DNA of 64,000 bases from an uncultured Spirochaetaceae bacterium (GTDB lineage: Bacteria; Spirochaetota; Spirochaetia; Sphaerochaetales; Sphaerochaetaceae): assembly GCA_944389505.1 (NCBI GenBank), contig CALXMP010000003.1:62001-126000 (forward strand). The letters run 5' to 3'. Below are positions 3,003 through 56,651 of this stretch, piece after piece (the stretch's first letter is position 1; every line of letters starts with the position of its first letter). A program made the translations under genes and the position numbers. Under the pieces are notes generated by a model, which did no database searches, was not told the origin of the DNA, and was given only the letters and a program-made list of their open reading frames with translations.

Positions 3003-4523
3003 TTGGAATATGTAATTGAGATGATCGGCATCCGGAAGGAGTTTCCGGGGATTGTTGCCAATGATGATATAACCCTTCAGGTCCGTGAAGGGGAGATACA
3101 CGCGATACTCGGAGAGAACGGGGCCGGGAAATCAACATTGATGAGCATTCTCTTCGGCCTGTACCATGCTGACCGTGGCACAATAAGGATCAGAGGAAGG
3201 GAAGTAAGCATAAAGAACCCTAATGATGCATTTGCCCTAGGTATCGGCATGGTCCATCAGCATTTCCAGCTGGTCCATAATTTCACCGTTGCAGAGAATA
3301 TCATTCTGGGGAAGGAAGGCGGATTCGTATATGATATCCGCAAGGCCTCTGAAAGGATAAAGGAGATATCTGAGCGCTATGGGCTTTCGATAGAGCCTGA
3401 TATGGTGATTGAGGATATAACTGTTGGAATGCAGCAGCGTGTCGAGATCCTCAAGATGCTATACCGCGATGCCGATATCCTTATATTCGATGAGCCGACA
3501 GCTGTCCTTACTCCTCAGGAGATCGATGAGCTTATGCAGATAATGAGGAATCTTGCTGCAGAGGGCAAGTCCATAATCCTCATCACCCATAAGCTTGAAG
3601 AGATCAAGGCAGTAGCTGACCGGTGCACAATCATCAGGAGAGGAAAGCTTATAGGTGTTGTCGATGTAAAAGAGGCATCACCTGCCGAGATGGCGGCGAT
3701 GATGGTCGGACGCCCTGTATCCTTCACAGTTGAGAAAGCTCCTGCTTCCATTGGAGAACCCATTCTTGAGATAAGGAATCTCTCTGTGATGAGCGCACGG
3801 CACGTTCTTGGCGTAAAAGACTTCAGCCTGAGCGTTCATAGAGGCGAAATAGTCGGAATCGCAGGTGTTGATGGCAATGGCCAGTCTGAGCTTGTAGAGG
3901 CAATCACTGGGCTGAGGCGGATTGAATCAGGTTCCATTCTGTTTAAGGGACAGGATATTTCAGGAATATCGATCAGAAAGCGTAATGAGCTTGGTATGGG
4001 GCATATCCCGGAGGACAGGCAGAAGCGTGGCCTGATACTCGGTGCATCCCTTACCGATAACATGGTGATTAAGGAATTCTACAAAGAGGGTTTCAGCCAT
4101 CGTGGCATCCTTGATTATCCCTGCATCCAGGACTACGCTGAGGGAATCATAGCGAAGTTCGATGTGAGATCCGGAGAAGGCGCAGACTCGCTTGCGGGCA
4201 AGCTTTCAGGAGGCAATCAGCAGAAGGCGATAATAGGCAGGGAGATTGAGAGCAATCCTGATCTGCTCATCGCTGTGCAGCCAACGAGAGGACTCGATGT
4301 TGGAGCTATCGAATTCATCCATTCGCAGCTTGTGAAGGAACGTGACAACGGCAAGGCCGTCCTGCTTGTCTCTTTCGAGCTCGATGAGATATTCAATCTC
4401 TCTGACCGCATAGCCGTAATCAATTCAGGGCATCTGATTGATGTCGTGGATACGGATAAGACCGATGTGAATGCGGTTGGGCTTATGATGGCAGGCATAA
4501 AGGCGTCAGGAGGTGAGGCATGA
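3003..4523 (+). CDS. Nucleoside ABC transporter ATP-binding protein, two ATPase domains
   Basis: The protein has 506 residues with two tandem ABC domains, as in the sugar/nucleoside (NupO/YufO) class. Domain 1 has Walker A GENGAGKST and Walker B ILIFDEPTAV. Domain 2 begins around EPILEIRNLS, has the degenerate P-loop GVDGNGQSEL, and has signature KLSGGNQQK and LLIAVQPTRGLD. It powers import through the two permeases downstream. The start is probably TTG 3003, with AGGAAA 6-7 bases upstream; an in-frame ATG at 3021 is the alternative. It overlaps the next gene by 4 bases (ATGA). Confidence 0.92.
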   Translation: MEYVIEMIGIRKEFPGIVANDDITLQVREGEIHAILGENGAGKSTLMSILFGLYHADRGTIRIRGREVSIKNPNDAFALGIGMVHQHFQLVHNFTVAENIILGKEGGFVYDIRKASERIKEISERYGLSIEPDMVIEDITVGMQQRVEILKMLYRDADILIFDEPTAVLTPQEIDELMQIMRNLAAEGKSIILITHKLEEIKAVADRCTIIRRGKLIGVVDVKEASPAEMAAMMVGRPVSFTVEKAPASIGEPILEIRNLSVMSARHVLGVKDFSLSVHRGEIVGIAGVDGNGQSELVEAITGLRRIESGSILFKGQDISGISIRKRNELGMGHIPEDRQKRGLILGASLTDNMVIKEFYKEGFSHRGILDYPCIQDYAEGIIAKFDVRSGEGADSLAGKLSGGNQQKAIIGREIESNPDLLIAVQPTRGLDVGAIEFIHSQLVKERDNGKAVLLVSFELDEIFNLSDRIAVINSGHLIDVVDTDKTDVNAVGLMMAGIKASGGEA

Positions 4524-5722
4524 GGAAGGCAGCAAAAACCCTTGAGGCAAGGAACGCTTCTCCTCTTCTTGTATCGCTCTCTGCGGTATTCCTTGGGATA
4601 ATAGCGGGAAGCATCTTCATCCTCTTTATCGGCAAGAACCCATTCGATGGGTTTGAGAAGATTCTTTTTGGAGCACTTTCGAGCCGCAGGCGTATCGGGA
4701 ATACGCTCGGCATGTCGACACAGCTGATTCTAATAGGTCTTTCCGTTGCGTTTGCATTCAAGACAGGACTCTTCAATATCGGGGCATCGGGGCAGATGCT
4801 GGTGGGAGGCATAACAGGTTCCATCCTTGCATATTACCTTCCGATGGATATGCCAAGGGTATTGTATCTTCCTATCATCGTGATAGCGGCTGCTGTCGCT
4901 GGAGGATTCTGGGGATTCATCTCCGGCCTTCTGAAGGCGAAGTTCAATGTCCATGAGGTTGTTTCCACGATAATGCTCAACTGGATTGCTTACTGGATGG
5001 TCTATGATTTCATACCACGCTTCATAATCGATCCGACGATCTCTGTGAAGTCAAAACCGATTCCGCTTGAGCATACGCTCCGGGCAGAGTGGCTAAGGAA
5101 TATCACAGGATTCTCCACGCTCAACTATGGTTTCTTCATAGCGATTGCAATGGCCGTCGTTGTCTGGTTCATACTGAAGAAGACAACGCTCGGATTCAGC
5201 CTGAAGGCCGTTGGCTCGAACAGATTCTGCGCGGAATATGCCGGTATAAATGTATCCGGATCCATCATGATCTCGATGGCAATAGCCGGAGCGCTTTCCG
5301 GTCTGGCAGGCCTTACATATTACTGCGGATACTCAGAGATAATGGAGATGGGCAAGATGCCGAATGAGGGCTTTGACGGCATTGCTGTGGCGCTTCTCGG
5401 CAACTGCTCTCCGCTCGGTGTCTTCTTCTCCGCAATCTTCTTCGGCATCCTCAAGATGGGAAGGGGCTCACTTGCCGCAACAGGCATTCCCACAGAGATT
5501 GCTGATACAATCATAGCCACCGTGATATATTTCACAGCGACCAATGTCCTTCTCTCCGCATTCTGGAACGAGCGTTTCAGGCAGAGCTTCGAGAAAAAGG
5601 AGGAGGCTGCGAGTGCGGCTATGAAGGCAAATGGCGATGCCCGATCCGTATCGGAGCTCAGCAGAAAGGAATTCGAAAGCCTTGCAAAGGCAGGAAGGCA
5701 TCTTCTGAAGGAGGGCAGGTGA
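4520..5722 (+). CDS. Nucleoside ABC transporter permease 1
   Basis: This 400-residue polytopic membrane protein belongs to the branched-chain/sugar/BMP permease family (NupP/YufP type). It has about eight to ten hydrophobic segments and the conserved stretches FKTGLFNIGASGQM and GMPxEGFDGIAVALLGN-like residues (KMPNEGFDGIAVALLGN). It forms a heterodimeric channel with the next gene product. It overlaps its neighbours by a few bases on both sides, so the operon is tightly coupled. The C-terminal about 40 residues are charged and cytoplasmic. Confidence 0.9.
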   Translation: MRKAAKTLEARNASPLLVSLSAVFLGIIAGSIFILFIGKNPFDGFEKILFGALSSRRRIGNTLGMSTQLILIGLSVAFAFKTGLFNIGASGQMLVGGITGSILAYYLPMDMPRVLYLPIIVIAAAVAGGFWGFISGLLKAKFNVHEVVSTIMLNWIAYWMVYDFIPRFIIDPTISVKSKPIPLEHTLRAEWLRNITGFSTLNYGFFIAIAMAVVVWFILKKTTLGFSLKAVGSNRFCAEYAGINVSGSIMISMAIAGALSGLAGLTYYCGYSEIMEMGKMPNEGFDGIAVALLGNCSPLGVFFSAIFFGILKMGRGSLAATGIPTEIADTIIATVIYFTATNVLLSAFWNERFRQSFEKKEEAASAAMKANGDARSVSELSRKEFESLAKAGRHLLKEGR

Positions 5723-11890: not shown

Positions 11891-12123
11891 ATTGGCAATA
11901 CGTACAATGATAGTAAAACATAAGCATATATGTTTAAGTTTGGAGCAAAGAAAATTTAACATTTTATTTGCATTCCTTCATAACCTGTGAGACAATTGAT
12001 TTATCCGGGAAGGATGATTGATCCAGCACCTTCACGGATTCTCAGTAGAATGGGAACAAGGAGGTTTGCCACTGGTGCTCAGCCAGTGGTGATTTTTTTG
12101 CCAGTGTTCTCAACAATTTATGT
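11891..12123. other. AT-rich intergenic region upstream of the hsd locus
   Basis: No gene is convincing here. It contains ttttatttgcat (11962-11973), repeated exactly at 18114-18125 on the far side of the restriction locus. An AAGGAGG stretch near 12058-12065 and a terminator at 12069-12099 follow. Confidence 0.5.
12069..12099 (+). terminator. Rho-independent terminator upstream of the hsdS cassette
   Basis: CCACTGG (12069-12075) and CCAGTGG (12083-12089) form a perfect 7-bp stem followed by TGATTTTTTT. It would stop plus-strand transcription before it reaches the silent hsdS cassette, which therefore has no evident promoter. Confidence 0.8.
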
Positions 12124-12843
12124 TTGAAGATAAACGATAATTTAGCTGATAAAGCGCTGATAATATTCAAGGAATGGTTCATTGACAATCCTTCCGCTGC
12201 ATCTTGGAAAGAAGGCACCTTCTCTGATCTTATAGAAAGAACAATAAGTGGAGATTGGGGGAAAGATGCTCCATCAGGTAATAATACAGAAATGGTCTAT
12301 TGTATTCGTGGAGCTGATATTCCTGAAGTTCGGGCTGGGAATAAAGGTAAAATGCCAATCCGATATATTCTTCAAAAGAACTTTGCAACAAAGCATCTTG
12401 AAGCAGGAGACATTGTTGTCGAGATATCAGGAGGAAGCCCCACTCAATCAACTGGTCGAGCTGCTGAAATATCTGATTCACTTCTTAAGCGATATGCAAA
12501 AGGCATGGTGTGTACAAACTTTTGTAGAGCATTGAAGCCAATAAGTGGATATAGCATGTATGTTTATCATTATTGGCAATATTTCTACAATAAGGGAATT
12601 TTCTTTAATTTTGAAAATGGAACCACAGGTATAAAGAATCTTGACCTAAATGGATTTATTGAAACACAACCTATCAATATAGCGCCTGACAATCTTGTAA
12701 TAAAATTTGATACCCTTTGTCAGTCTATCTACTCAGCAATATATGCAAATGGTATGGAAAATGAGAGGCTCTCTCTGTTAAGAGATACCCTTTTACCTAA
12801 ACTATTATCAGGAGAAATTGACATTTCAAATATTGGATACTAG
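12124..12843 (+). CDS. hsdS: Silent hsdS half-cassette: second target-recognition domain of type I specificity subunit
   Basis: The open frame (239 codons from TTG 12124) begins KINDNLADKALIIFKEWF, the central conserved region of HsdS. It continues through one target-recognition domain (WKEGTFSDLIERTISGDWG, then RALKPISGYSMYVYHYWQYF) and ends with RLSLLRDTLLPKLLSGEID, a typical HsdS C-terminus. It has no ribosome site, and a terminator lies just upstream, so it is probably not expressed in this orientation. It lies inside the invertible segment. Inversion would attach it in frame to the hsdS gene on the other strand at the NL of KINDNL. Confidence 0.85.
   Translation: MKINDNLADKALIIFKEWFIDNPSAASWKEGTFSDLIERTISGDWGKDAPSGNNTEMVYCIRGADIPEVRAGNKGKMPIRYILQKNFATKHLEAGDIVVEISGGSPTQSTGRAAEISDSLLKRYAKGMVCTNFCRALKPISGYSMYVYHYWQYFYNKGIFFNFENGTTGIKNLDLNGFIETQPINIAPDNLVIKFDTLCQSIYSAIYANGMENERLSLLRDTLLPKLLSGEIDISNIGY
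12126..12145 (+). repeat. Left 20-bp inverted repeat of the hsdS invertible segment
   Basis: Gaagataaacgataatttag at 12126-12145 is the exact reverse complement of 12848-12867. The flanking bases on both sides differ, so the match is exactly 20 bp. It lies in coding sequence for KINDNL, the link between the two recognition domains. Confidence 0.9.
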
Positions 12844-13394
12844 GCCACTAAATTATCGTTTATCTTCTCATTGAGAGCAATTTTATCGTCGAAAGCGGAT
12901 AGGATGGACACAACCTTGACTTGCATATCATAATCCGGTAGCAGGATTGTGCATTTTAGAAGTTCCGGTTGCCTTAAACCTGTTACTGTAGTCCCTGTAG
13001 ATCGAGCATTTATTTCACCCCTGAACTTAGGAGACTGCATGTAATAATAGACATATTTCGAACAAACACTTTCCTTTATGCGAATACAAAATAGTCTTTG
13101 GCTTAGTACTATTTTCTCATTGGAATCCCAATATAACACCTCCCCTGCAGGCGCCTCTGATGTGATAAGGATATCTCCTCTCTGTACTTCTTCCTTCATC
13201 CATGCTGAATATAATTTTTCGTCAACAAATCTAATTGAATCTGCATTTGTAATCTTTCCAGTTTTGACGTTTTTTGCCGAGAGCGCTCGATAACCAGAAA
13301 CTGCCCAATCAGAGCCAAGCTTTGCAGGGGTTTTCCCTCTACAGTCTATAATTGTCTGAGTAATCGAACTAAGAGGGACTGAATTAAATCTCAT
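12840..13394 (-). CDS. hsdS: Type I restriction specificity subunit, half-length (one target-recognition domain)
   Basis: The protein has 184 residues instead of the usual 380-450. It begins MRFNSVPLSSITQTIIDCRG, contains one recognition domain (GYRALSAKNVKTGKI, then GDILITSEAPAGEVL, GTTVTGLRQPELLKCTILLP) and the first conserved helix (KVVSILSAFDDKIALNEKI). It runs across the inverted repeat and stops at once (NDNLVA, stop). The ATG at 13394 is preceded by GAGGGGG; a TTG lies two codons upstream. It overlaps the end of hsdM. In the inverted orientation the fused product would be 414 residues. A half-subunit may still work as a dimer and recognise a palindromic site. Confidence 0.88.
   Translation of the reverse strand: MRFNSVPLSSITQTIIDCRGKTPAKLGSDWAVSGYRALSAKNVKTGKITNADSIRFVDEKLYSAWMKEEVQRGDILITSEAPAGEVLYWDSNEKIVLSQRLFCIRIKESVCSKYVYYYMQSPKFRGEINARSTGTTVTGLRQPELLKCTILLPDYDMQVKVVSILSAFDDKIALNEKINDNLVA
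12848..12867 (-). repeat. Right 20-bp inverted repeat of the hsdS invertible segment
   Basis: This is the reverse complement of 12126-12145. Recombination between the two would flip the 742-bp segment 12126-12867 while keeping both HsdS reading frames in phase. Confidence 0.9.
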
Positions 13395-14901
13395 ATCCAA
13401 TCCCCCTCAGCTGCTTTCTAATCTCTTTTTCAAGGTCATGAGACTGTCTGAAAAGATCTGAGAGCTCTAATGTAAGAGCTTTCATCTTCTCCTCAAATGG
13501 GATGCCGTCATCTTCCTTTTCTGGAATTCCGACATATCGCCCAGGAGTAAGGATGAAATCTTGTTGAGCTATATCTTCTGTTGTTGCTACCTTGGCAAAG
13601 CCAAGTTCATCAACATCTTCTCCATTACGGAATTTTGTGAATGCATTAGCAATTCTTTTGATTTCTTCTTCTTTTATTTCCTTCTGAGTTCTTGAAACCA
13701 TCTCACCTAAGTTTCTTGCATCGATGAACAGTGTTTTACCTTTCAGTTCTTTGTTTCTTGAGATAAACCAAAGACTCACAGGAATCTGTACTGTATAGAA
13801 CAGCTGAGCAGGAAGAGAGATTATACCCTCAACCAGGTCTGCCTTTATGATGTTCTGTCTGATTACCCCTTCATTACTTGTATTAGATGCCAATGCACCA
13901 TTTGCAAGAACAAGTCCGATTCTTCCTGTATTGGAAAGGTGAGAGATCATATGCTCAATCCAAGCAAAGTTTGCGTTTCCTACAGGAGGAATACCATAAA
14001 CCCAGCGAGGATCATCTGTGAGCTTATCACCTCCCCATGCAGAGAGATTGAATGGAGGATTTGCAAGTATGAAATCTGCTTTCAATGTTGGATGCTTATC
14101 GTTGAGGAATGTATCAGCTGCAGAATCACCAAGATCAGCTTCAATTCCTCTGATTGCAAGATTCATCTTACATAGTCTCCATGTCTCAGGATTTGCATCC
14201 TGTCCATAGATTGAAACTTCATTGATCCTGCCCGAGTGGGCTTCGATAAATTTTCTAGATTGGACAAACATACCACCAGACCCACAGCAAGGATCGTAAA
14301 TTCTCTTGCCTTTATACGGTTGTATGACTTCAACCAGAATCTTTACAATGCAGGGTGGGGTGAAGAACTCACCACCCTTGCCGGCATTTTTCGAAAACTT
14401 GGTTAAGAAATACTCGTATGTACGCCCAAGAACATCTCTGTCATTCTCATCAACTTCCATAAGAATATTAGAGAATTTAAGGATTACATCACCAAGCTTT
14501 TGCTTATCCCAGTCCGGCTTTGCGTAGTCTTTGGGAAGAACACCTTTAAGATTTGGGTGATGATTCTCTATGGCAACCATTGCATTATCGATGATTGTTC
14601 CGATTTCCTCCTTGCCAGCAAATTGCTGAATATAAGACCATCTTGCCTTTTCAGGAACATAGAAGATTCCAATAGCTTTATATTCATCTTCATCTTCCTC
14701 ATCGCCATAACCTTCAGCCTTCAGCTGATTGTATTTCGTTTCAAATCTGTCAGAGATATATTTGAGGAAAACCAGTCCTAGCACGATATTCTTGTAGTTC
14801 TCTGCATTCATTGAACCCCAGAGAATCTCTGCTGCTTGCCAAAGCTGCTCTTCAAATCCAATATTCCCTGTATTCTTGGTAGAATCCTTTCGTTTTGCCA
14901 T
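13384..14901 (-). CDS. hsdM: Type I restriction-modification DNA N6-adenine methyltransferase subunit
   Basis: The protein has 505 residues: an N-terminal helical HsdM domain (FEEQLWQAAEILWGSMNAEN), then an N6-MTase domain. The AdoMet motif DPCCGSGGMF sits at about 203 and the catalytic NPPF at 281-284 in ANPPFNLSAWGGDKL. With two HsdS recognition domains it forms the M2S methylase, and with HsdR the full restriction complex. The gene lies between hsdR and hsdS on the minus strand, 12 bases after hsdR starts downstream transcription order R-M-S, and overlaps hsdS. Confidence 0.95.
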   Translation of the reverse strand: MAKRKDSTKNTGNIGFEEQLWQAAEILWGSMNAENYKNIVLGLVFLKYISDRFETKYNQLKAEGYGDEEDEDEYKAIGIFYVPEKARWSYIQQFAGKEEIGTIIDNAMVAIENHHPNLKGVLPKDYAKPDWDKQKLGDVILKFSNILMEVDENDRDVLGRTYEYFLTKFSKNAGKGGEFFTPPCIVKILVEVIQPYKGKRIYDPCCGSGGMFVQSRKFIEAHSGRINEVSIYGQDANPETWRLCKMNLAIRGIEADLGDSAADTFLNDKHPTLKADFILANPPFNLSAWGGDKLTDDPRWVYGIPPVGNANFAWIEHMISHLSNTGRIGLVLANGALASNTSNEGVIRQNIIKADLVEGIISLPAQLFYTVQIPVSLWFISRNKELKGKTLFIDARNLGEMVSRTQKEIKEEEIKRIANAFTKFRNGEDVDELGFAKVATTEDIAQQDFILTPGRYVGIPEKEDDGIPFEEKMKALTLELSDLFRQSHDLEKEIRKQLRGIGYEI

Positions 14902-14913
14902 TATTCCCCTCTT

Positions 14914-17900
14914 TTATACCACTTGATTGTCTGTCCAGAGTTCACACTGTTCAAGAACCGTCTTGAGAGCACTTGCCACCTCTTTTGGTGGATAATCGTA
15001 TTTTCTGAGGAGATGCTTTATCATCACACGCATCTCTGCTCTTGCTGATTCTTTCTTATTCCAGTCGATAGTTCTGCTCTTCTTAAGTTTTTCAGTGAGT
15101 TCTTTTGTCATCGCAACAAGCTGATCATTCTCATAGAAATCTTTTACAGCCTGCGGTTTTGTTAGGGCATCATAGAAGGCCATTTCCTCGTCTGTTAATC
15201 CAAGAGAATTTGCCTCAGATGATGCATCCTTGATTTCTTTTGCAATCTTTAAGAGTTCTTCGATGACTTCGGCATTGGTAATCTGCATATTGCGCCATCG
15301 ATTCATAATATCTTCCATCTTCTCAGAGAAAACCTGGGCTTTTACGAGATTGGTCTTTTTGTAGTCGTGGACCTTATCTTGAAGAAGTCGTCTGAGAAGC
15401 GTAGAAGCAATATTCTTTTCCTTGAGGGCACTCACTTCCTTAAGGAAATTCTCATCAAAGAGAGAGAACTCAGTATCGATATTCTCAAAGACATTGATGA
15501 CTCCATTGCTTGTGACAGACTGGTTCAGCAGTTCTTTAATCTGCTTTGAGAGCTCTTTAAGGCTCTGGCCAGTCTTTGCCCCAGGATCATCGATCTTATG
15601 GATTGATACCCTGATTGTCTCAAAGAATGACGCATAATAGCGTTCTTTTTTATCCAGAAGACTTCGACAAAGAGAAGCAGCCTGTCTTAGCTGGTAAGCA
15701 GCATCAAGGAAGGTCTTTTTTTTCTTCTGGTCTTCTAGAATGAAGTTTAAACCGTTTGTGACAGTCTTTGCCCTGTCGTAATCAGAACCTGTAATGAATG
15801 GATTGATGTTGAAGCCATGGAACAAGGCGATACAGACTTCAAGCTTATCGCGGAATGTTATGAGAGCGGTTCTTGAGATATCAGTATCACCATAATTCTC
15901 CTGATCTCGCTCAGTGTATTCCTTCATAGCTTCTTTGAGCGCTGTCGCAATGCCGATGTAATCGACAACAAGACCTCCTTCCTTGTCTTTGAATACTCTA
16001 TTGACTCTGGCGATTGCCTGCATGAGATTGTGTCCTGCCATTGGTTTGAAAACATACATGGTCGCAAGTGACGGGACATCAAATCCTGTGAGCCACATAT
16101 CAACGACAATGGCTATCTTCATTGGGTCATTGTCATCTTTAAACTTTTTTGCAAGCTCTTTCTTTGTGTACTCTGTCCCAAGAATTTCATACCATTCTGC
16201 AGGATCTTTATTGTCATGCGTCATGACAACTTTAATCTTTTCTTTCCAATCAGGACGAAGCCTTATCATTTCCTGATAGAGAAGGACTGCAATCGGTCTT
16301 GAATATGCGACTATCAGAGCTTTCCCCGTGAGAACATCCTCTCTTGCCTCATAATGATTGATGATATCATTTGCAAGTGTATGAATTGTCTCTGGAGCAC
16401 TCAGAAGAGCCTCCATTGTCGCATTCTCTTTCTTGGTTTTCTCTGCATTGACGCTGTATTCAGGTTCTTCTTCTGCAACATAGTCCTGAAGGATGTGATC
16501 GATATTCTCAAGAATATCCTTGTCAAGGCTCAGATTCATGACACGACTCTCATAATATACAGGTCGTGTCGCTCCATCGATGACGGACTGAGTCATATCA
16601 TAGACATCAATACAGTTTCCAAAGACTTCAATTGTATTGTGATCTTTTTTTGCAATCGGTGTTCCTGTAAACCCTACGAATGTTGCATTTGGTAGTGCAT
16701 CACGAATAACACGGGCTGTACCTTTCTTCATTTTCTGTGCTTTGACATCATATCGCTCCTCAAGGCCATACTGGCTTCGGTGGGCCTCGTCTGCAAGGAC
16801 GATGATGTCATCACGGGTTGAGAACGGTTCATCAGCCTCTTCGAACTTCTGCATAGTTGTGAAGAAGATTCCACCATAGTGTGTAGTAGATAAAGTTTCT
16901 GTCAGATCTTTTGTACTCCCTGCCTGTTTAGGATTTGTCCTGAGAAAATCCTTGCATTTTGAGAACTGAAGATATAGCTGATCATCAAGATCATTTCTAT
17001 CTGTTATGACAACAATTGTAGGGTTAGGAAGTGTGTTCCTAAGAAGATGAGAGAGGAACACCATCGAAAGGGACTTGCCGCTTCCCTGTGTATGCCAGAA
17101 GACACCACCTTTTCTTGACTTGCCAATAGCGGAGACTGTTGTCTGCAAAGCTTTTCTGACCGCGTGATATTGATGATAAGCTGCAAGGATTTTGATATCG
17201 CCCTTTTCCTCTTTCTGGAAAAGGATGAAATTATGGATGATATCAAGCAGTCTTTCTTTTTCCAGCATTCCTTTTATGAGAATAGTAAAATCTGGATTAT
17301 CATTTCTCGTTATTCCGTCTACAGTTTTCCATTGGGAGTATCTATTTTCATCAGCTGTGATTGTTCCAGCTTTGGTAACAATCATATCGCTTATTATGCA
17401 GAAAGCATTGTAATTAAATAGAGTAGGAATAACCATTTTATAATTCTCAAGTTGAAGAAAAGCATCCGAATAGCTTGTTTGCTCCCTGGAACATGATTTA
17501 AGTTCCATAACAACTAAAGGGAAACCATTGATAAAGAGTATAACGTCTGGGCGTTTTTGTTCTTTTTCGATGATGGTCCATTGGTTTGCGACAAAGAAAG
17601 AATTGTTTTCGATGTTTTCATAATCAATGAGCTTTATCAGAGGATAGATAGTTTTTCCATCCTCCATAATGCTGACTGTTATTCCATTTTGAAGATATCC
17701 AAAGAATGTTTCGTTTCTTTGAATGAGGCTTCCTGTTAAACGGTTTTTTAAAGTAAAAATAGCTGTATCAATTGCTTGTCTCGATGCTTTTGGATTTATT
17801 CTCTCCAATGAAGAATATAATTCATCTTCAAAAAGGACATCCGTATAATTACGATCTATATCTGGACCAAATATATGAGTGTACCCAAGCTCATCAGAAA

Positions 17901-17952
17901 GGTATTGAACTAAAGCATTCTCGAAGACTGCTTCATTGAATACATCAGACAC
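14914..17952 (-). CDS. hsdR: Type I restriction endonuclease motor/nuclease subunit
   Basis: The protein has 1012 residues. The N-terminal nuclease of the PD-(D/E)xK type shows PDVILF (Asp136) and VVMELKS (Glu151, Lys152 region). The SF2 translocase follows: Walker A QGSGKS (about 289-294), ITDRNDLDDQL, DEAH at 388-391, GFTGTPI, and later DMWLTGFDVPSL and QAIARVNRV. The C-terminus is helical and should contact HsdM. It is the first gene of the R-M-S operon, and its composition is AT-rich relative to the neighbourhood, consistent with horizontal acquisition. Confidence 0.95.
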   Translation of the reverse strand: MSDVFNEAVFENALVQYLSDELGYTHIFGPDIDRNYTDVLFEDELYSSLERINPKASRQAIDTAIFTLKNRLTGSLIQRNETFFGYLQNGITVSIMEDGKTIYPLIKLIDYENIENNSFFVANQWTIIEKEQKRPDVILFINGFPLVVMELKSCSREQTSYSDAFLQLENYKMVIPTLFNYNAFCIISDMIVTKAGTITADENRYSQWKTVDGITRNDNPDFTILIKGMLEKERLLDIIHNFILFQKEEKGDIKILAAYHQYHAVRKALQTTVSAIGKSRKGGVFWHTQGSGKSLSMVFLSHLLRNTLPNPTIVVITDRNDLDDQLYLQFSKCKDFLRTNPKQAGSTKDLTETLSTTHYGGIFFTTMQKFEEADEPFSTRDDIIVLADEAHRSQYGLEERYDVKAQKMKKGTARVIRDALPNATFVGFTGTPIAKKDHNTIEVFGNCIDVYDMTQSVIDGATRPVYYESRVMNLSLDKDILENIDHILQDYVAEEEPEYSVNAEKTKKENATMEALLSAPETIHTLANDIINHYEAREDVLTGKALIVAYSRPIAVLLYQEMIRLRPDWKEKIKVVMTHDNKDPAEWYEILGTEYTKKELAKKFKDDNDPMKIAIVVDMWLTGFDVPSLATMYVFKPMAGHNLMQAIARVNRVFKDKEGGLVVDYIGIATALKEAMKEYTERDQENYGDTDISRTALITFRDKLEVCIALFHGFNINPFITGSDYDRAKTVTNGLNFILEDQKKKKTFLDAAYQLRQAASLCRSLLDKKERYYASFFETIRVSIHKIDDPGAKTGQSLKELSKQIKELLNQSVTSNGVINVFENIDTEFSLFDENFLKEVSALKEKNIASTLLRRLLQDKVHDYKKTNLVKAQVFSEKMEDIMNRWRNMQITNAEVIEELLKIAKEIKDASSEANSLGLTDEEMAFYDALTKPQAVKDFYENDQLVAMTKELTEKLKKSRTIDWNKKESARAEMRVMIKHLLRKYDYPPKEVASALKTVLEQCELWTDNQVV

Positions 17953-18141: not shown

Positions 18142-19785
18142 TTATAGGTTATGAAGATCTTCTTCCCAATCATCGATTGCTTTAGTCATGTCTTTTGAAG
18201 GGGATTTTCCATTGAATTCTATGAAATGATTTAGATAGCTCATAATCTCCTGCCGGCCAAGAAGTCCTTTGTCGATTATTCCCTGTAATATCGAATGGCG
18301 ATCTTTTGCTGTAAGTGGTGAATTGTAACCAACTGTATAACCGCAGAGTTTAAAAATTGATTCTGTTGCCATCGTCCCGTTGTTTCTTCGCACTTTATAT
18401 CCAATGATTTTCATGTCTGGCAACTGAAATTGTGTTCCTATTATCTTCCAGCCTTCACGGTATAAAGGTTCTACTTCCTTACGATAGAAATCAGAATAGA
18501 TGTAATATCTGCCGCATTCTATGCAATATCCGACTTCAATCGGTATATCAATTAAATGGTTATCCAAATCAACCATCCTTATCTTTATCCGCTTGTCTTT
18601 CAGATGATGCCCATTGCCTATACATATGAATTTATCAGCTACAGTGATAATCACATCAGGATAAATATATTTCAATTCAGATAAATCTTCAGAAGATTTA
18701 TCGTTTGTAGCATTAGTGTTTTTAATGCCATTGTTATTACTTAAAAAAGCCGAATTTGATGCTTCTACAGCGCTAGAAGATTCCAATGAGATAATATCTA
18801 CCTGAGATTTATCAAGCCTACTTCCTTTGAAAGCCATATCATTGAAGATTGGTAATGAATAGGCTTGAATTGTCTTAAGATATGGATTATCAACAAAAGC
18901 AAATTCTGCAATATATCCAACGAATGAAGGGATAACATAATTATCTCCCTTTTTTGCTGTGGGATAATAAACCAGCCTATATTCATCTCTAGTATGTTTC
19001 TTATCTCCCCAACTAAAACATCCAGGTTTTGCATAAACAATACCATCAATAACACAATAATCAGGATTATCCTGATTGATGATAACTGTTTGTAAAGAAG
19101 TGCATCCAAAGAATAAAGAGGCTCCAATTAACAAATTAGGCATACTGCTTTCAATAACTACGGTTTTTAAAGATAAGCAACCAGTAAACAAGGAATCCCC
19201 AAGACAAGTAACTGATTCGGGAATGATAATGCTTGAAAGGTTGAAACAATTGGTAAATGCATTTTCCATTATTTCTTCAACAGTATTAGGAATCACAATA
19301 GATTTGAGATACCTTGCTCCGTAAAAAGCCCCTGGTGCTATGTAATCAGTGCCGGAGGGTATTATATATGTTTCTCCTTCTTTCAGAGGAGGATACTTGA
19401 TTAATGAGTGCCCCCAAAAAAGAACCCCATCAATATCCGTTAAATTTTCATTATTTCTAACGATTATTTCTGTTACGGTATAAAGATAGGAAAGATCCTG
19501 CCCCAATTCAAAGGCATCACCAAGTGGCATGAACCCGTCAGGGAAAATCAGTCTGTTGATCCCATTTAGAGTAAAACAAAAATGGTCAGTGAAAGAACAG
19601 ACTTGATAACCATTAATCTCAAGTGGAATCTCAAAGTCGCCACCAACATCAATATGTCCTATATAAGAATGCAGAATGCATCTTTTGTCATTCTCAAAAC
19701 CAGTAAGACTGTAAGTATAATCACCAAAAACCATTGGACGAGGCTGGTAATCTACCCTTGGATATTTCTGTTTTGTTTTACCCAT
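18142..19785 (-). CDS. BspA-like leucine-rich repeat (LRR_5) protein
   Basis: The product is about 547 residues (an in-frame ATG six codons upstream at 19803 is equally possible; neither has a ribosome site). Residues about 100-340 carry LRR_5 repeats such as YIAPGAFYGARYLKSIVIPN and MENAFTNCFNLSSIIIPE, each about 23 residues long. The C-terminal about 180 residues have no recognised domain. Most BspA-like proteins are secreted, but no signal peptide or lipobox is visible here, so this one is probably cytoplasmic. It is AT-rich and lies between the hsd locus and a DUF2971 remnant. Confidence 0.75.
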   Translation of the reverse strand: MGKTKQKYPRVDYQPRPMVFGDYTYSLTGFENDKRCILHSYIGHIDVGGDFEIPLEINGYQVCSFTDHFCFTLNGINRLIFPDGFMPLGDAFELGQDLSYLYTVTEIIVRNNENLTDIDGVLFWGHSLIKYPPLKEGETYIIPSGTDYIAPGAFYGARYLKSIVIPNTVEEIMENAFTNCFNLSSIIIPESVTCLGDSLFTGCLSLKTVVIESSMPNLLIGASLFFGCTSLQTVIINQDNPDYCVIDGIVYAKPGCFSWGDKKHTRDEYRLVYYPTAKKGDNYVIPSFVGYIAEFAFVDNPYLKTIQAYSLPIFNDMAFKGSRLDKSQVDIISLESSSAVEASNSAFLSNNNGIKNTNATNDKSSEDLSELKYIYPDVIITVADKFICIGNGHHLKDKRIKIRMVDLDNHLIDIPIEVGYCIECGRYYIYSDFYRKEVEPLYREGWKIIGTQFQLPDMKIIGYKVRRNNGTMATESIFKLCGYTVGYNSPLTAKDRHSILQGIIDKGLLGRQEIMSYLNHFIEFNGKSPSKDMTKAIDDWEEDLHNL

Positions 19786-19875
19786 ACATTTATTGTAAAA
19801 CATCTTTTTGCGTAAAATCAGCTATAATATCTACCTATTTGATAATTTTATGGCACAGAATTATCATTCAAAGTA

Positions 19876-20025
19876 ATGAATGTAGAATTATATGTTGCGC
19901 AGGAAATTGCGAGATTGAAGGAAACAGCATGCAGAAAAGTGAATAATGGAGATTTAGACATTATTCCATACACCTGTAAAGCAGATGGGGTGCATTCCAA
20001 ACATATGGAAAAATCGATGGATTGA
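19876..20025 (+). CDS. Small hypothetical ORF upstream of the DUF2971 remnant
   Basis: A 49-codon frame starts at ATG 19876 and ends at 20025, overlapping the DUF2971 reading frame by 4 bases. It is too short for domain assignment. It has no clear ribosome site. It could be the frameshifted N-terminal part of the neighbouring gene or a chance frame. Confidence 0.25.
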   Translation: MNVELYVAQEIARLKETACRKVNNGDLDIIPYTCKADGVHSKHMEKSMD

Positions 20026-20975
20026 TTTTTCAGTTTACCAGTTTTGATACTCTGAAACTTATTCTAAAAAACAAGACATTGCATCTCAATAGAGCAATGA
20101 ACATGTCTGATCCTATTGAGAATCAGGGATATTTTGCCGATGAAGCAGCGGGAAAGGAGGTAAATGAGATATTACGAAGGAATGTACGAATAGCATGTTT
20201 TTGTAAACCCTATCTCGAAATCAATGATGAAAAAATACCTGCATATGCTATGTCAAGAATGTGGGATCAATACGCATACAAAACAGATAAAAATGGTAAG
20301 AATTTCAGGGGATGCTACATCGGATTCTACCGCCAGAAACTTGAGAGATTATTAAATGCCTAATATTCGAGGACTTGCAAGATTGGAGATATCATATATG
20401 ATTTAGCCTTGGATCCCGAATATAAAATTTCGATGGGCAACCTTACTATTTATACAAACGAAGCAACAGATCGTATATTTCGAAATAAAGATGGAACATA
20501 CAGCACTTGGGATGAATCCAAGGTTGAAGAATTCAATTTAGAAGGAGATTTATTTGGTTTCCAATTCCATAAATCTTTTGATTATCGAGATGAGAACGAA
20601 ATCAGGTTTTCAATATATGATTCAAGCGTTGAAGATACATTTCTTCATAGTATTCTCCCTGCAATAAAAGTTATAATACTTAACCAGCAAATCAGCGATA
20701 AAGAGGCTTTGCAAGTTGATTTTGAAACTGCTGGCAATGTTTATAAAATGATTTACGAGTCACCGTATGTCTTTGGAGGTAATGCCCTCAATCAGCGTCA
20801 TTCAAAAGGCTTTTGTAAGCTCAAGAAAATAACTACTTTAGAGTCTTATACAATAAAAAGTATATTATTCAGTAACTTGCCGATGTCACCAGAACAACAA
20901 GCAATCATGATAAAGCTTCATTATCATATAAATAGACATAATGCGTTATTAGCAAAGAGAAAAAAGAATAAGTAG
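20022..20975 (+). pseudogene. DUF2971-family gene interrupted by an in-frame stop
   Basis: Codons from 20022 give FTSFDTLKLILKNKTLHLNR and NMSDPIEN, then SRMWDQYA and CYIGFYRQKLERLL, all typical of DUF2971. A TAA at 20361-20363 stops the frame. The same frame then continues open (GDIIYDLALDPEYKI) to 20975 and contains FQFHKSFDYRDENEIRF, the usual C-terminal half. One nonsense change therefore explains the split; a re-start at 20409 (TTG) lacks a ribosome site. DUF2971 genes are often found in defence or mobile regions, which fits the location beside the restriction locus. Function is unknown. Confidence 0.65.
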
Positions 20976-31096: not shown

Positions 31097-31260
31097 TTTC
31101 CTGTCAGATATTGTCGGATGAAAATGCCATATTTGCTCCGCTAAGCTCTATGTTGCACAGCTTGCTGGATTATATTTGGTTATCTGCAGCAATCTTCTCT
31201 TTTGTATTGCTTTTGGATTTTTTCATTGATTTCCATCTTCCAATGCCATATAGTTCTTCT

Positions 31261-31345
31261 CAGATGCAGGGGAACTCGGAAGAGTTGAGAAGGTAAAACC
31301 TGACCCTTGGAACCTGTTGGTTAAGACCAGCGTAGGGAGCATCGG
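31261..31345 (+). ncRNA. TPP riboswitch (THI element)
   Basis: The leader contains the conserved thiamine-pyrophosphate aptamer pieces in order: GATGCAGGGG, GTTGAGA (the usual CTGAGA), ACCCTTGGAACCTG, the variable stem, CCAGCGTAGGGA and GCATC closing P1. It is directly upstream of thiD. The rest of the gap 31043-31260 holds the preceding terminator and no gene. Confidence 0.9.
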
Positions 31346-31357
31346 GTCAGTCCCCCT

Positions 31358-53034: not shown

Positions 53035-53081
53035 AAATCCAGTTCTGACTATTTCCCATAGGCCTCTGGGAGGTGGCCTAT

Positions 53082-54242
53082 ATGGGTAGGCACAAAGAAC
53101 CTGTAAGGTACAAGATGATTGGTAGGTACTGGTACTATAAGACACCAGACATGGATGGATTCAAAACAACGGGTGAAACAACAAAGGCTTTGGCTAAGCA
53201 TGTTGTCACAAAACTGATGCAGCGCAAGGTAGCTGGCAATCCCAATCCGTTATTCAATAACTATGCAGAACCATTCTTTGACTGGGAACGGTGCCCTCAT
53301 GTATTACGTCTAAAGGCTGAGGGAAAACATATCGGGGAACGTTACTGCCATTCAGAAAGGGTGCTGCTTGAACAGTATGTATTCCCATCATCATTGGGAA
53401 AGATGCATATAGCTGATATCAGGCGGGGTGATCTGCTTGATTATAGGGCAAGGCTTCAAGCTAAAGGGGTATCTGGCAATACCATCAATAAGATCATGAA
53501 GGCAGTCAAGGTTATATTCAGTGAGGCTGTATACAGGGAGGATCTGCCATATAACCCCGCATTAGGGCTAGGTAATGTAGTGACAAACAACAAGGAGGCC
53601 GGCATATTCTCAGAGCTTGAGCTCAGAGCCTTGTTCCGTAACCCTTACGACAGTCTGCTATGGCGGTCCCCCTCAGACTATATCTGTTTCCTTATTGCGG
53701 CATCTACTGGTATGCGCAGTGGGGAGGTTCTGGCTTTAAGGTGGTGCAATGTCCATGTGGCTGACAGGTATATTCATATATGTGAAGCATGGAAGGATAA
53801 CAACCATACTGTATCAGGACTCCCAAAGAGCTATAAGCCAAGGGATGTGATAATACCGCAGTATCTTGCTGACAGGCTGGTTGAATACCAGCGCATAACA
53901 GCTTTTGGTGCTCCGGGAGATCTTGTGGTATGTACTGATGATGGCAGGCCGTATACCATAGTGCGCTGGCAGAAGGTATTCAAAAGAGCACTGTATGGTA
54001 TTGGTATAACAGAAGAGGATCGTGTAGCCAGGCACCTCAAACCTCATAGTTTCAGGCATACCCTGAATACCCTTATGAGGGAAAAAGGTGTCAATCCCGA
54101 TGTCATACGGCTTATGCTTGGCTGGTCTGATGCCAAAATACAGAACAACTATACCCACTTTGATGTTGCTCGTATGGTAAGGCAGGGAGAGCTTATGGAT
54201 GCTGTATTTACAGATCAGCAAGCACTGCCTGTAAGCGAATAG
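53082..54242 (+). CDS. int: Tyrosine recombinase/integrase
   Basis: The protein has 386 residues. An N-terminal arm/core-binding region (IADIRRGDLLDYRARLQAKG) is followed by a catalytic domain with Arg in STGMRSGEVLALRW, HxxR box in HLKPHSFRHTLNTLM and the Tyr nucleophile in QNNYTHFD; LMLGWSD is the usual Leu-Gly-His/Trp box. It should catalyse integration and excision between the 38-bp repeats. ATG 53082 has GGAGGT upstream; GTG 53073 is the alternative. Confidence 0.93.
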   Translation: MGRHKEPVRYKMIGRYWYYKTPDMDGFKTTGETTKALAKHVVTKLMQRKVAGNPNPLFNNYAEPFFDWERCPHVLRLKAEGKHIGERYCHSERVLLEQYVFPSSLGKMHIADIRRGDLLDYRARLQAKGVSGNTINKIMKAVKVIFSEAVYREDLPYNPALGLGNVVTNNKEAGIFSELELRALFRNPYDSLLWRSPSDYICFLIAASTGMRSGEVLALRWCNVHVADRYIHICEAWKDNNHTVSGLPKSYKPRDVIIPQYLADRLVEYQRITAFGAPGDLVVCTDDGRPYTIVRWQKVFKRALYGIGITEEDRVARHLKPHSFRHTLNTLMREKGVNPDVIRLMLGWSDAKIQNNYTHFDVARMVRQGELMDAVFTDQQALPVSE

Positions 54243-54563: not shown

Positions 54564-55619
54564 TCATACCTGTATAAGTATGTTTCTGAGTAAATACTGC
54601 TCATCAGGTATGATATCAATGAGCTTATGAAAGTGAATGTTCATCTTCTTCCTCATATATCTGACAATGTAGGGGGTGAGATATTCAGCAAGCTCAGTGT
54701 AGGTTCTGTTGAGAATATCGGAGTGTGTAAGCACATGGAAGTTCCTGCTGTAAATCCTGAACTCTATCCTTGTGATATCTTGTGTTGTCCTTATTCCTTT
54801 CTTCTTCCTAAGCTGAAGCGTTTTATCGTAAACACAGAGTATCGACTTGCGTCTATGCCCATCTTCTGTACAATGGTAGTCCTTTGAGTATAAGGTGTTT
54901 TCTTCCTCCGAATCTGGGTTGAAATCAGTTTCATATAAGTATTCCTTAACCATCTTGGAATAAGGAATATTGAAGTCAAAACAGAGTTCAATGACATTCA
55001 GTTTCTTCATACTATAGATACGCTCAAAGAACTCCCCGGAATTCTTGACTTCATTCTCTAGAGGTATTTCCTCGCTGTATATTTCTCCAGTGTCACAGTC
55101 CTGTATGGTCTTGCTATATGGTATCTGGAATATATCAGTTCCATAAACGGTATGTTCGAATGTATGCAGAACCTGATTCTCTAAGTTAGTATTCAGCGAG
55201 ATATATTCGTTATTGATGTTATAGAGGAAGTAAGCCCCAATTGGTACAAGGGATATAGCTCCATTCTTGTATTTCATGGTGTTATCTTTGGCATTGAAAT
55301 AGTCTCTGCTGAATGTGAAGCCAATCTTATCTATGCCACTGGGTGTAATAAGTCCTTTGTTGTACCTGTGCAGGGCCTTATAGGACATAAAGTCTGGGTC
55401 TACAGTATAAGCTCCATACTCTATCAATCTCCGTATGGTTTTCTTATCCTCCGCAAATCTCGGTGAAACATAGTTGACGTCATTGAGTTCCATCCTTGTG
55501 GATGCCGAAATTCCAGTTCCGTTTTCATTAAAAATATAATCAGATATATTCATATTATTTATTGTACCGACTGGAATTAGAACTTCAGGAAAAAAGCCGG
55601 AATTTCTTCCAATACCCAT
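54564..55619 (-). CDS. Replication-initiator-like protein A (paralogue of 55710-56651)
   Basis: The product is up to 351 residues; the first 23 codons are uncertain, since ATG 55619 and a later ATG (about 55553) both lack ribosome sites. Features shared along the whole length with the next gene are DKIGFTFSRDYFN, LNVIELCFDFN, SILCVYDKTLQ and TRIEFRIYSRNF. The combination of YDK and R-x-E-x-R resembles rolling-circle initiators or MobT-type relaxases of the Rep_trans class. This is a fold-level guess. It probably acts on element DNA. Confidence 0.6.
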   Translation of the reverse strand: MGIGRNSGFFPEVLIPVGTINNMNISDYIFNENGTGISASTRMELNDVNYVSPRFAEDKKTIRRLIEYGAYTVDPDFMSYKALHRYNKGLITPSGIDKIGFTFSRDYFNAKDNTMKYKNGAISLVPIGAYFLYNINNEYISLNTNLENQVLHTFEHTVYGTDIFQIPYSKTIQDCDTGEIYSEEIPLENEVKNSGEFFERIYSMKKLNVIELCFDFNIPYSKMVKEYLYETDFNPDSEEENTLYSKDYHCTEDGHRRKSILCVYDKTLQLRKKKGIRTTQDITRIEFRIYSRNFHVLTHSDILNRTYTELAEYLTPYIVRYMRKKMNIHFHKLIDIIPDEQYLLRNILIQV

Positions 55620-55709
55620 CAAGATAGTTGACTTTTATTTGACATTGCATCAATAAACAAATGATATTACTGTATGTTCCATATACGTACTGATGTATAG
55701 TTACGTCCC

Positions 55710-56651
55710 TTAATTACATAAATAATTCATTGATGCTTCCAGTATCCTGCGGAGTATCCTCTGATTTTCTGGTAGGGCATTCAGTAGTCTTGTGAAATCA
55801 ATACCAAGCCTCTTCATATGCTTCACGATATGTGGCATCAGTATATCAACAAGCTCCTCATAGGTATGGCTTAAAAGCATATCAGCATGATCTTTCATAA
55901 TGGTATATGACGTATCGAACAACCGAATCTCGAACCTTTCCATGTGACCTAATATCTTCCTGTGCTTTTTGTCTTCTTGTTGTTTGGACTTATCATATAT
56001 ACAGATCAGTGAGCGTTTTTTGTTCTTGCTTTCATATACCCTGTAGTCCTTGATGGAATAAAGTGTTCCTTTGTGGTTACGGAAATCATTGGAATCAACA
56101 AGTTCCCGTATTCTCAAATTCATATCAAAGCACAGCTCTATACATTTAAGCTTGGCTTCTTCCAGTATCCTTTCAAGGAACTCTTCTGCAGATGTTACAT
56201 TGTTATTCGGGAATTCTGTTTCTGTAACAAGTCCATCTTCATAATCCATTACTGTCTTCTTTATAGGTAACTGGAACAGGCTTATATTGAAGGCAAGGAA
56301 TCTGAACATAGAATCAACATATTCCTTTATGTTGCTATATATAGGAACATATTCTTTGTTAAGGTTTATGCTGAAGTACTTTCCATGCTTTCGTATTACT
56401 ATCGCACCACCTGTATACTTCGTCCCATAAGCATCATCATTAAGGTAATCGGTGCTGAGACTAAATGTGAGTTTATCAATGGAATGGTAGTAGAAGTCTC
56501 CTACATATGGTGTCTTAATTGCGGAAGAATACTTCTGAGCTTCCTGAAGAGAGGTTTCTAGGATTACTGCTTTATACTCGATTTCCCGGTATGCATTACC
56601 GTCTTTGTCTTTAGGAGTTCTTCTCCTATTTTCAATATGTAAATTCAACAT
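55710..56651 (-). CDS. Replication-initiator-like protein B
   Basis: The protein has 313 residues, homologous over its full length to the gene downstream: DKLTFSLSTDYLN, LKCIELCFDMN, SLICIYDKSKQQ and MERFEIRLF, then a basic C-terminus. It may be a rolling-circle-type initiator or relaxase. There is no Shine-Dalgarno before the ATG. Instead the start codon lies in the loop of a 12-bp hairpin, and a second hairpin upstream shares one arm, so translation or initiation is probably structurally controlled. Confidence 0.62.
   Translation of the reverse strand: MLNLHIENRRRTPKDKDGNAYREIEYKAVILETSLQEAQKYSSAIKTPYVGDFYYHSIDKLTFSLSTDYLNDDAYGTKYTGGAIVIRKHGKYFSINLNKEYVPIYSNIKEYVDSMFRFLAFNISLFQLPIKKTVMDYEDGLVTETEFPNNNVTSAEEFLERILEEAKLKCIELCFDMNLRIRELVDSNDFRNHKGTLYSIKDYRVYESKNKKRSLICIYDKSKQQEDKKHRKILGHMERFEIRLFDTSYTIMKDHADMLLSHTYEELVDILMPHIVKHMKRLGIDFTRLLNALPENQRILRRILEASMNYLCN

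What the first reader, a model, noticed from the sequence alone, without database searches (positions are those of the whole stretch)
12126..12867. Invertible hsdS segment giving a binary specificity switch
Perfect 20-bp inverted repeats (12126-12145, 12848-12867) lie within the two HsdS frames. In this orientation hsdS is a 184-residue half-protein that stops three codons after the repeat. The other recognition domain lies on the opposite strand behind a terminator and without a ribosome site. Inversion would join residue 182 of one frame to the remaining 232 codons of the other in phase, giving 414 residues, the normal HsdS length. The switch therefore toggles between half-S (dimeric, likely palindromic target) and full-S (bipartite target).
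Basis: partly seen in the sequence, partly recalled or inferred. Interest (0 to 1): 0.75.

Follow-up and report, generated by a model that had tools for sequence, protein, structure and literature searches.

The report
Invertible full-or-half hsdS switch cassette
A 742-base piece of a DNA-restriction gene can probably flip over, so that the bacterium makes either a complete or a half-size DNA-recognition protein; the same design recurs in distant bacteria, and one pair of sequenced dairy plasmids shows it flipped both ways.

Summary
Two perfect 20-bp inverted repeats (12126-12145, 12848-12867) flank the second half of a Type I specificity gene. As assembled, hsdS is a 184-aa half protein; in-silico inversion gives 414 aa. 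Each repeat holds a TAAA-N6-TTTA site inside the CR1 codons 'INxNL'. Across Spirochaetota, Fibrobacterota and Bacillota the same sites flank a two-faced cassette: one end opens into TRD2-CR2, the other gives a two-codon cap and stop ('NL[AV][AV]*'). Lactococcus cremoris plasmids pJM2A and pJM1A have identical flanks and differ by exact inversion of such a cassette, so hsdS is full in one and half in the other. A sister species' assembly branches exactly at the site, and a family member (L026) holds the full form. Open: the own genome lacks the cognate recombinase found beside the multi-cassette relatives, so this copy may be slow, driven in trans, or frozen in the half state; its 272-kb contig shows no mixed orientation. 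Whether half-S is an active dimer with a palindromic target (as for NgoAV) or an OFF state is untested; half-S keeps 29 of about 40 predicted CR1-helix residues. New variant of a known kind (inverting hsdS).

The parts
12126..12867 (.). invertible segment (two-faced cassette: TRD2-CR2 one way, 2-codon stop cap the other)
   Evidence: repeats; in-silico inversion; same cassette type inverted between L. cremoris pJM2A and pJM1A
12126..12145 (+). left repeat; core site TAAACGATAATTTA at 12131-12144; 'orphan' site opening into the C-half
12848..12867 (-). right repeat inside hsdS CR1; core site 12849-12862 coding (K)INDNL
12840..13394 (-). hsdS, half state: TRD1 plus part of CR1, 184 aa, ends INDNLVA*
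   Evidence: dN/dS about 0.1 against G060 N-half; AlphaFold helix 155-183
12840..12848 (-). cap GTG GCC TAG (V A stop); its stop overlaps antiparallel the C-half stop 12841-12843 (CTAG)
12124..12843 (+). silent C-terminal half of HsdS (TRD2-CR2), no N-half or ribosome site in front
12066..12092 (+). terminator-like hairpin plus T-run outside the segment, shielding the C-half from rightward transcription
13384..14901 (-). hsdM (505 aa), overlaps hsdS start
14914..17952 (-). hsdR (1012 aa), intact

Best explanation
[quoted passage not shown] Two copies of a short tyrosine-recombinase-type site (TAAA-6-nt spacer-TTTA) lie head to head: one in the CR1 codons of hsdS, one beyond the C-half. In one orientation TRD1-CR1 is joined in frame to TRD2-CR2 and a full 414-aa S subunit is made. 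In the other, assembled here, TRD1 and most of the CR1 helix are closed by a conserved two-codon cap and stop, giving a 184-aa half-S, and the C-half is silent. Shown: the anatomy; in relatives the opposite state; in L. cremoris plasmids exact inversion between otherwise identical loci. Inferred: that the window's copy is or recently was switchable, probably by a recombinase acting in trans or since lost; and that half-S works as a dimer with an interrupted palindromic target, as NgoAV and engineered half-S proteins do. My estimates: invertible by design about 0.93; still switching in this species about 0.55; half-S catalytically active about 0.5.
For: Perfect 20-bp repeats far beyond chance. 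In-phase fusion to normal HsdS length. The site core has fixed TAAA/TTTA arms and a 6-nt spacer that is identical within a locus but differs between loci: CGATAA, CAGGAA, CAATCA, TCATCA, TACTAA. L. cremoris pJM2A and pJM1A: identical flanks, segment 4277-4939 exactly reverse-complemented at the sites, 379-aa S against a 168-aa half-S with the same N part. pUCCL627F carries the two cassettes exchanged between modules; L. salivarius BNS11 has both hsdS in the half state. L026 (HsdM 86% identical) is in the full state with the cap just behind the stop. In G047 a k127 contig ends at the last base of the site and shares exactly 127 nt with the contig that continues into the open C-half, as expected of a branch there. 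26 cap sites among paired loci, several of them repeat copies in sister plasmids, all stop at the third codon after NL; codons mostly G[CT]N GCN TAR, conservation ending at the stop.
Against: No cognate recombinase in the own genome: only XerC and XerD and one phage-type integrase, all distant, nor in G012, G006 or G047. The window lies in a 272-kb contig that crosses both repeats unbroken (contig length), so one orientation dominated the sample. No reads were available. Half-S stops within CR1 (29 of about 40 helix residues), whereas the engineered half-S in PMC6158711 was cut at the end of CR1. G047's second site was not found on its continuing contig.
Confidence: 0.8

Rival explanations
1. 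Frozen relic: the cassette once inverted by a cognate recombinase, the recombinase (and perhaps a second N-half) was lost, and the locus is locked in the half state.
For: No cognate recombinase in the own genome while the multi-cassette relatives have it adjacent; unbroken contig; a same-genus relative with the same TRD1 (75.6% identical) is also in the half state with hsdR and hsdM deleted or broken.
Against: Silent C-half still open over about 230 codons, repeats still 20/20 identical, hsdM and hsdR intact; G047, also without cognate recombinase, shows an assembly branch exactly at the site. XerC/D or the integrase at 53073-54242 could act in trans.
Confidence: 0.35
2. ON/OFF switch: half-S is inactive, so the half orientation simply turns the restriction-modification system off.
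For: Half-S ends inside the CR1 helix; PMC3874165 notes that homodimeric S subunits had been reported only for Type IC systems; most multi-cassette loci keep a second N-half that can take the C-half.
Against: The cap is conserved at exact codon position with synonymous-type variation across three phyla, which suggests a selected protein end; L. salivarius BNS11 keeps both S genes in the half state with intact hsdR and hsdM; NgoAV half-S is active in nature (PMC9577141).
Confidence: 0.4
3. The half state is only a silent by-product of a shufflon whose real output is alternative full-length S proteins, as in SpnIII.
For: In L007, L028, L029, JC4 and the Lactococcus plasmids C-halves are shared between two N-halves.
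Against: In the window and L026 no second N-half exists around the cassette, so inversion can only yield full or half; L023 shows the same layout on a contig that ends 54 bases beyond the site start.
Confidence: 0.15
4. Assembly artefact or chance repeat.
For: Draft metagenome-style assembly, no reads seen.
Against: Repeat length beyond chance; the same architecture in many independent assemblies including complete plasmids.
Confidence: 0.03

Closest known systems
Inverting (phase-variable) Type I hsdS loci / shufflons: SpnD39III, S. suis, L. monocytogenes ST8, L. reuteri LreRMII (PMC4190663, PMC7394358, PMC4783014, PMC6122466)
   Same: inverted repeats inside hsdS, TRD exchange by inversion, tyrosine recombinase usually adjacent
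   Different: those are described as swapping one full S for another full S; here the cassette has a stop-capped face, so inversion toggles full against half S; no adjacent recombinase in the window
NgoAV of Neisseria gonorrhoeae (PMC9577141, PMC6789123)
   Same: one locus switches between an active half-S (208 aa, GCAN8TGC) and a fused S (GCAN7STCA)
   Different: switch is poly-G slippage, not DNA inversion; no recombination site or cap cassette
EcoR124I delta50, EcoDXXI::Tn5 and engineered CC398-1 half-S (PMC3874165, PMC6158711)
   Same: half-S dimerises and recognises an interrupted palindrome
   Different: mutant or engineered truncations; the CC398-1 half-S keeps the whole CR1
Type I RM 'shufflon' on lactococcal megaplasmids pMPJM1 and pMPJM2 (PMC6458302)
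   Same: very probably the system compared here as pJM1A and pJM2A; same site type, cap and recombinase family
   Different: named a novel shufflon; the passages I found do not mention the half-S output

Membership tests
Type I restriction-modification system | hsdR, hsdM and hsdS genes together with the family domains | tested here: met
   HSDR_N/T1RH-like_C, HsdM_N/N6_Mtase and Methylase_S hits above cut-off;
Inverting hsdS phase-variable system | inverted repeats inside hsdS whose inversion makes another in-frame hsdS | tested here: met
Inverting hsdS phase-variable system | inversion observed (two orientations of the same locus) | tested here: inconclusive
   not for this species; shown between L. 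cremoris plasmids with the same cassette type, assembly branch in G047, opposite state in L026
Inverting hsdS phase-variable system | locus-encoded recombinase (usual, not universal) | tested here: not met
   none near hsd in the window; own genome has only XerC, XerD and a distant integrase
NgoAV-like full/half S switch | both full S and half S can be encoded by one locus | tested here: met
NgoAV-like full/half S switch | half-S active with palindromic bipartite target | not testable with these tools
   needs methylome or expression
NgoAV-like full/half S switch | switching by homopolymer slippage | tested here: not met
   the fusion point is an inverted site, not a poly-G tract

The most novel reading that the evidence does not exclude
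A widespread, purpose-built two-faced cassette (TRD2-CR2 on one face, a selected two-codon stop cap on the other) lets Type I systems in at least three phyla switch by inversion between a bipartite target (full S) and an interrupted palindromic target (half-S homodimer), both active.
Probability: 0.4. Interest if true: 0.7.

Novelty: new variant of a known kind. Interest (0 to 1): 0.56.

Why it matters
Inverting hsdS loci have been read as swapping one complete specificity for another; the half-length ORFs beside them are annotated as extra or truncated S genes. If the half state is a selected, active output, each such locus has a further methylation specificity, of a different symmetry class, that has gone uncounted. 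Long reads and methylomes of existing lactococcal and lactobacillar isolates could test this at once.

Tried and rejected
Serine recombinase as the inverter: none in the genome. The integrase at window 53073-54242 as cognate recombinase: only distant matches (22-33% identity) in the relatives. Search for the same species' other orientation in viral contigs: the site pattern gave 7 stretches that I did not follow up; the half-S protein gave no relatives. Nucleotide search in plasmids: no match. Pfam Methylase_S does not see the C-half; PADLOC profiles do. Cap conservation as mere recombinase-binding sequence: judged less likely because open sites differ at the same positions and variation follows codon positions, but shared ancestry is not excluded.

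Full report
OBSERVATION. The two 20-bp repeats are perfect, are the longest close-spaced exact inverted repeat in the window (20 bp, against 12-16 bp in 20 shuffled windows) and occur nowhere else in the 2.12-Mb genome. hsdS starts at ATG 13394 behind GAGGGGG, overlapping the end of hsdM, and ends ...NEKINDNLVA*. Inverting 12126-12867 in silico gives one 414-aa frame from that ATG, stopping at 12150. The opposite-strand frame is a genuine HsdS C-half. It has no ribosome site and lies behind a terminator-like hairpin at 12066-12092. hsdM and hsdR are intact. No other HsdM or PF01420 hit was found in the genome, although PF01420 misses some halves.

SITE. Across relatives the shared element is shorter than the repeats: TAAA-N6-TTTA, placed in the most conserved codons of CR1, INxNL. 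The 6-nt spacer is identical within a locus and differs between loci (CGATAA, CAGGAA, CAATCA, TCATCA, TACTAA), while the arms stay. That is what is expected of a simple tyrosine-recombinase site with a 6-bp crossover region (general knowledge). A tyrosine recombinase of one family (NCBIfam XerA-like; 52-66% identity across phyla) sits beside the multi-cassette loci: L007, L018, L028, L029, Treponema JC4, and Lactococcus, Ligilactobacillus and Enterococcus plasmids.

TWO-FACED CASSETTE. In these loci one end of the segment opens into TRD2-CR2 and, in most of them, the other closes the N-half with two small residues and a stop. 26 capped sites were counted, several of them repeat copies in sister plasmids, against a background of 33 of 585 unpaired motif occurrences with a stop at that codon (the background still includes some caps whose partner lay outside the fetched stretch). 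In 14 caps from Spirochaetota, Fibrobacterota and Lachnospiraceae the codons are mostly G[CT]N GCN TAR; conservation drops at the base after the stop. In the window the cap stop and the C-half stop share one CTAG. Archaeal (Methanobrevibacter) loci have paired sites that are open on both sides, swapping full for full, with no cap. G122 (L092/L131) has paired sites without a cap.

BOTH STATES EXIST. hsdM-linked hsdS is half in the window, L009, L023, JC4 (L024) and G060, and full in L007, L018, L026, L028 and L029. L. cremoris pJM2A and pJM1A are identical on both sides and differ by exact reversal of 4277-4939, bounded by the sites, turning a 379-aa S into a 168-aa half-S with the same N part. 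pUCCL627F carries the two cassettes exchanged between modules; L. salivarius BNS11 has both hsdS in the half state with hsdR and hsdM annotated. In the sister species G047, a k127 contig (MEGAHIT-style name) ends at the last base of the site and shares exactly 127 nt with the contig that continues into the C-half. That is the mark of a graph branch at the site: reads with a second continuation existed. This last step is inference from how the assembler works.

WHAT IS NOT SHOWN FOR THE WINDOW. Its genome lacks the cognate recombinase; what it has are XerC- and XerD-like genes in the hslV/ftsZ region and a phage-type integrase 41 kb away. The locus sits unbroken in a 272-kb contig. So the copy may invert rarely, by a recombinase acting in trans, or be frozen in the half state. 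G012 (full state, L026) and G047 also lack the recombinase yet hold the same architecture.

HALF-S. AlphaFold gives a confident TRD1 with a terminal helix 155-183 (pLDDT 85.8); the CR1 helix of the full protein L026 runs 158-197. Half-S thus keeps about three quarters of the dimerisation helix. Known active half-S: NgoAV 208 aa (PMC9577141), EcoR124I delta50 and EcoDXXI (PMC3874165), and CC398-1 cut at the end of CR1 (PMC6158711). PMC3874165 notes that homodimers had been seen only in Type IC. N-half evolution against G060 is strongly constrained (dN 0.15, dS 1.3), which fits use in either state. I put activity of half-S at about one half.

PLACE AMONG KNOWN THINGS. It belongs to the inverting hsdS kind (PMC4190663, PMC7394358, PMC4783014, PMC6122466) by repeats and frame logic, fails the usual local-recombinase feature, and works like NgoAV in output but by inversion. 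The literature I could search names the lactococcal relative a shufflon (PMC6458302) without the full/half reading in the passages found. A systematic study of gene-altering programmed inversions (cited in PMC11892184) could not be read here, so prior description cannot be excluded.

Noticed in passing
window 53073-54242 (+) and 54564-56651 (-): Phage-type tyrosine integrase followed by two related ORFs that look like replication-initiator proteins (by eye): probably an integrated element; distant matches to the integrase in relatives.
   Followed up: partly
L165 (G060:C2:131000-137000): Same-genus relative with the same TRD1 in the half state, where a deletion joins the HsdR N-terminus to the HsdM C-part and a kinase-like ORF lies between the half-S and the silent C-half: a decaying version of this locus.
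   Followed up: partly
L186 3822-7115 (Ligilactobacillus salivarius BNS11): Both hsdS genes of one Type I locus are in the half state, with hsdM and hsdR annotated intact: a natural test strain for half-S activity.
   Followed up: partly
L007 10726-12369: An OLD/AAA-type ATPase-like ORF lies between two invertible hsdS modules.
   Followed up: no
window 20022-20363 and 20409-20975 (+): Two consecutive ORFs that look like one gene split by a stop or frameshift; no Pfam or PADLOC hit; resembles by eye an ORF next to hsdR in Treponema JC4 (L163 2772-3689).
   Followed up: no
window 18142-19803 (-): BspA-type leucine-rich repeat protein upstream of hsdR.
   Followed up: no
window 31258-31355 (+): TPP riboswitch, 61.9 bits.
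   Followed up: no
L011, L017, L083 (Methanobrevibacter): Same site grammar and recombinase family in archaeal hsd loci, but sites open on both sides (full-for-full swap), no caps.
   Followed up: partly
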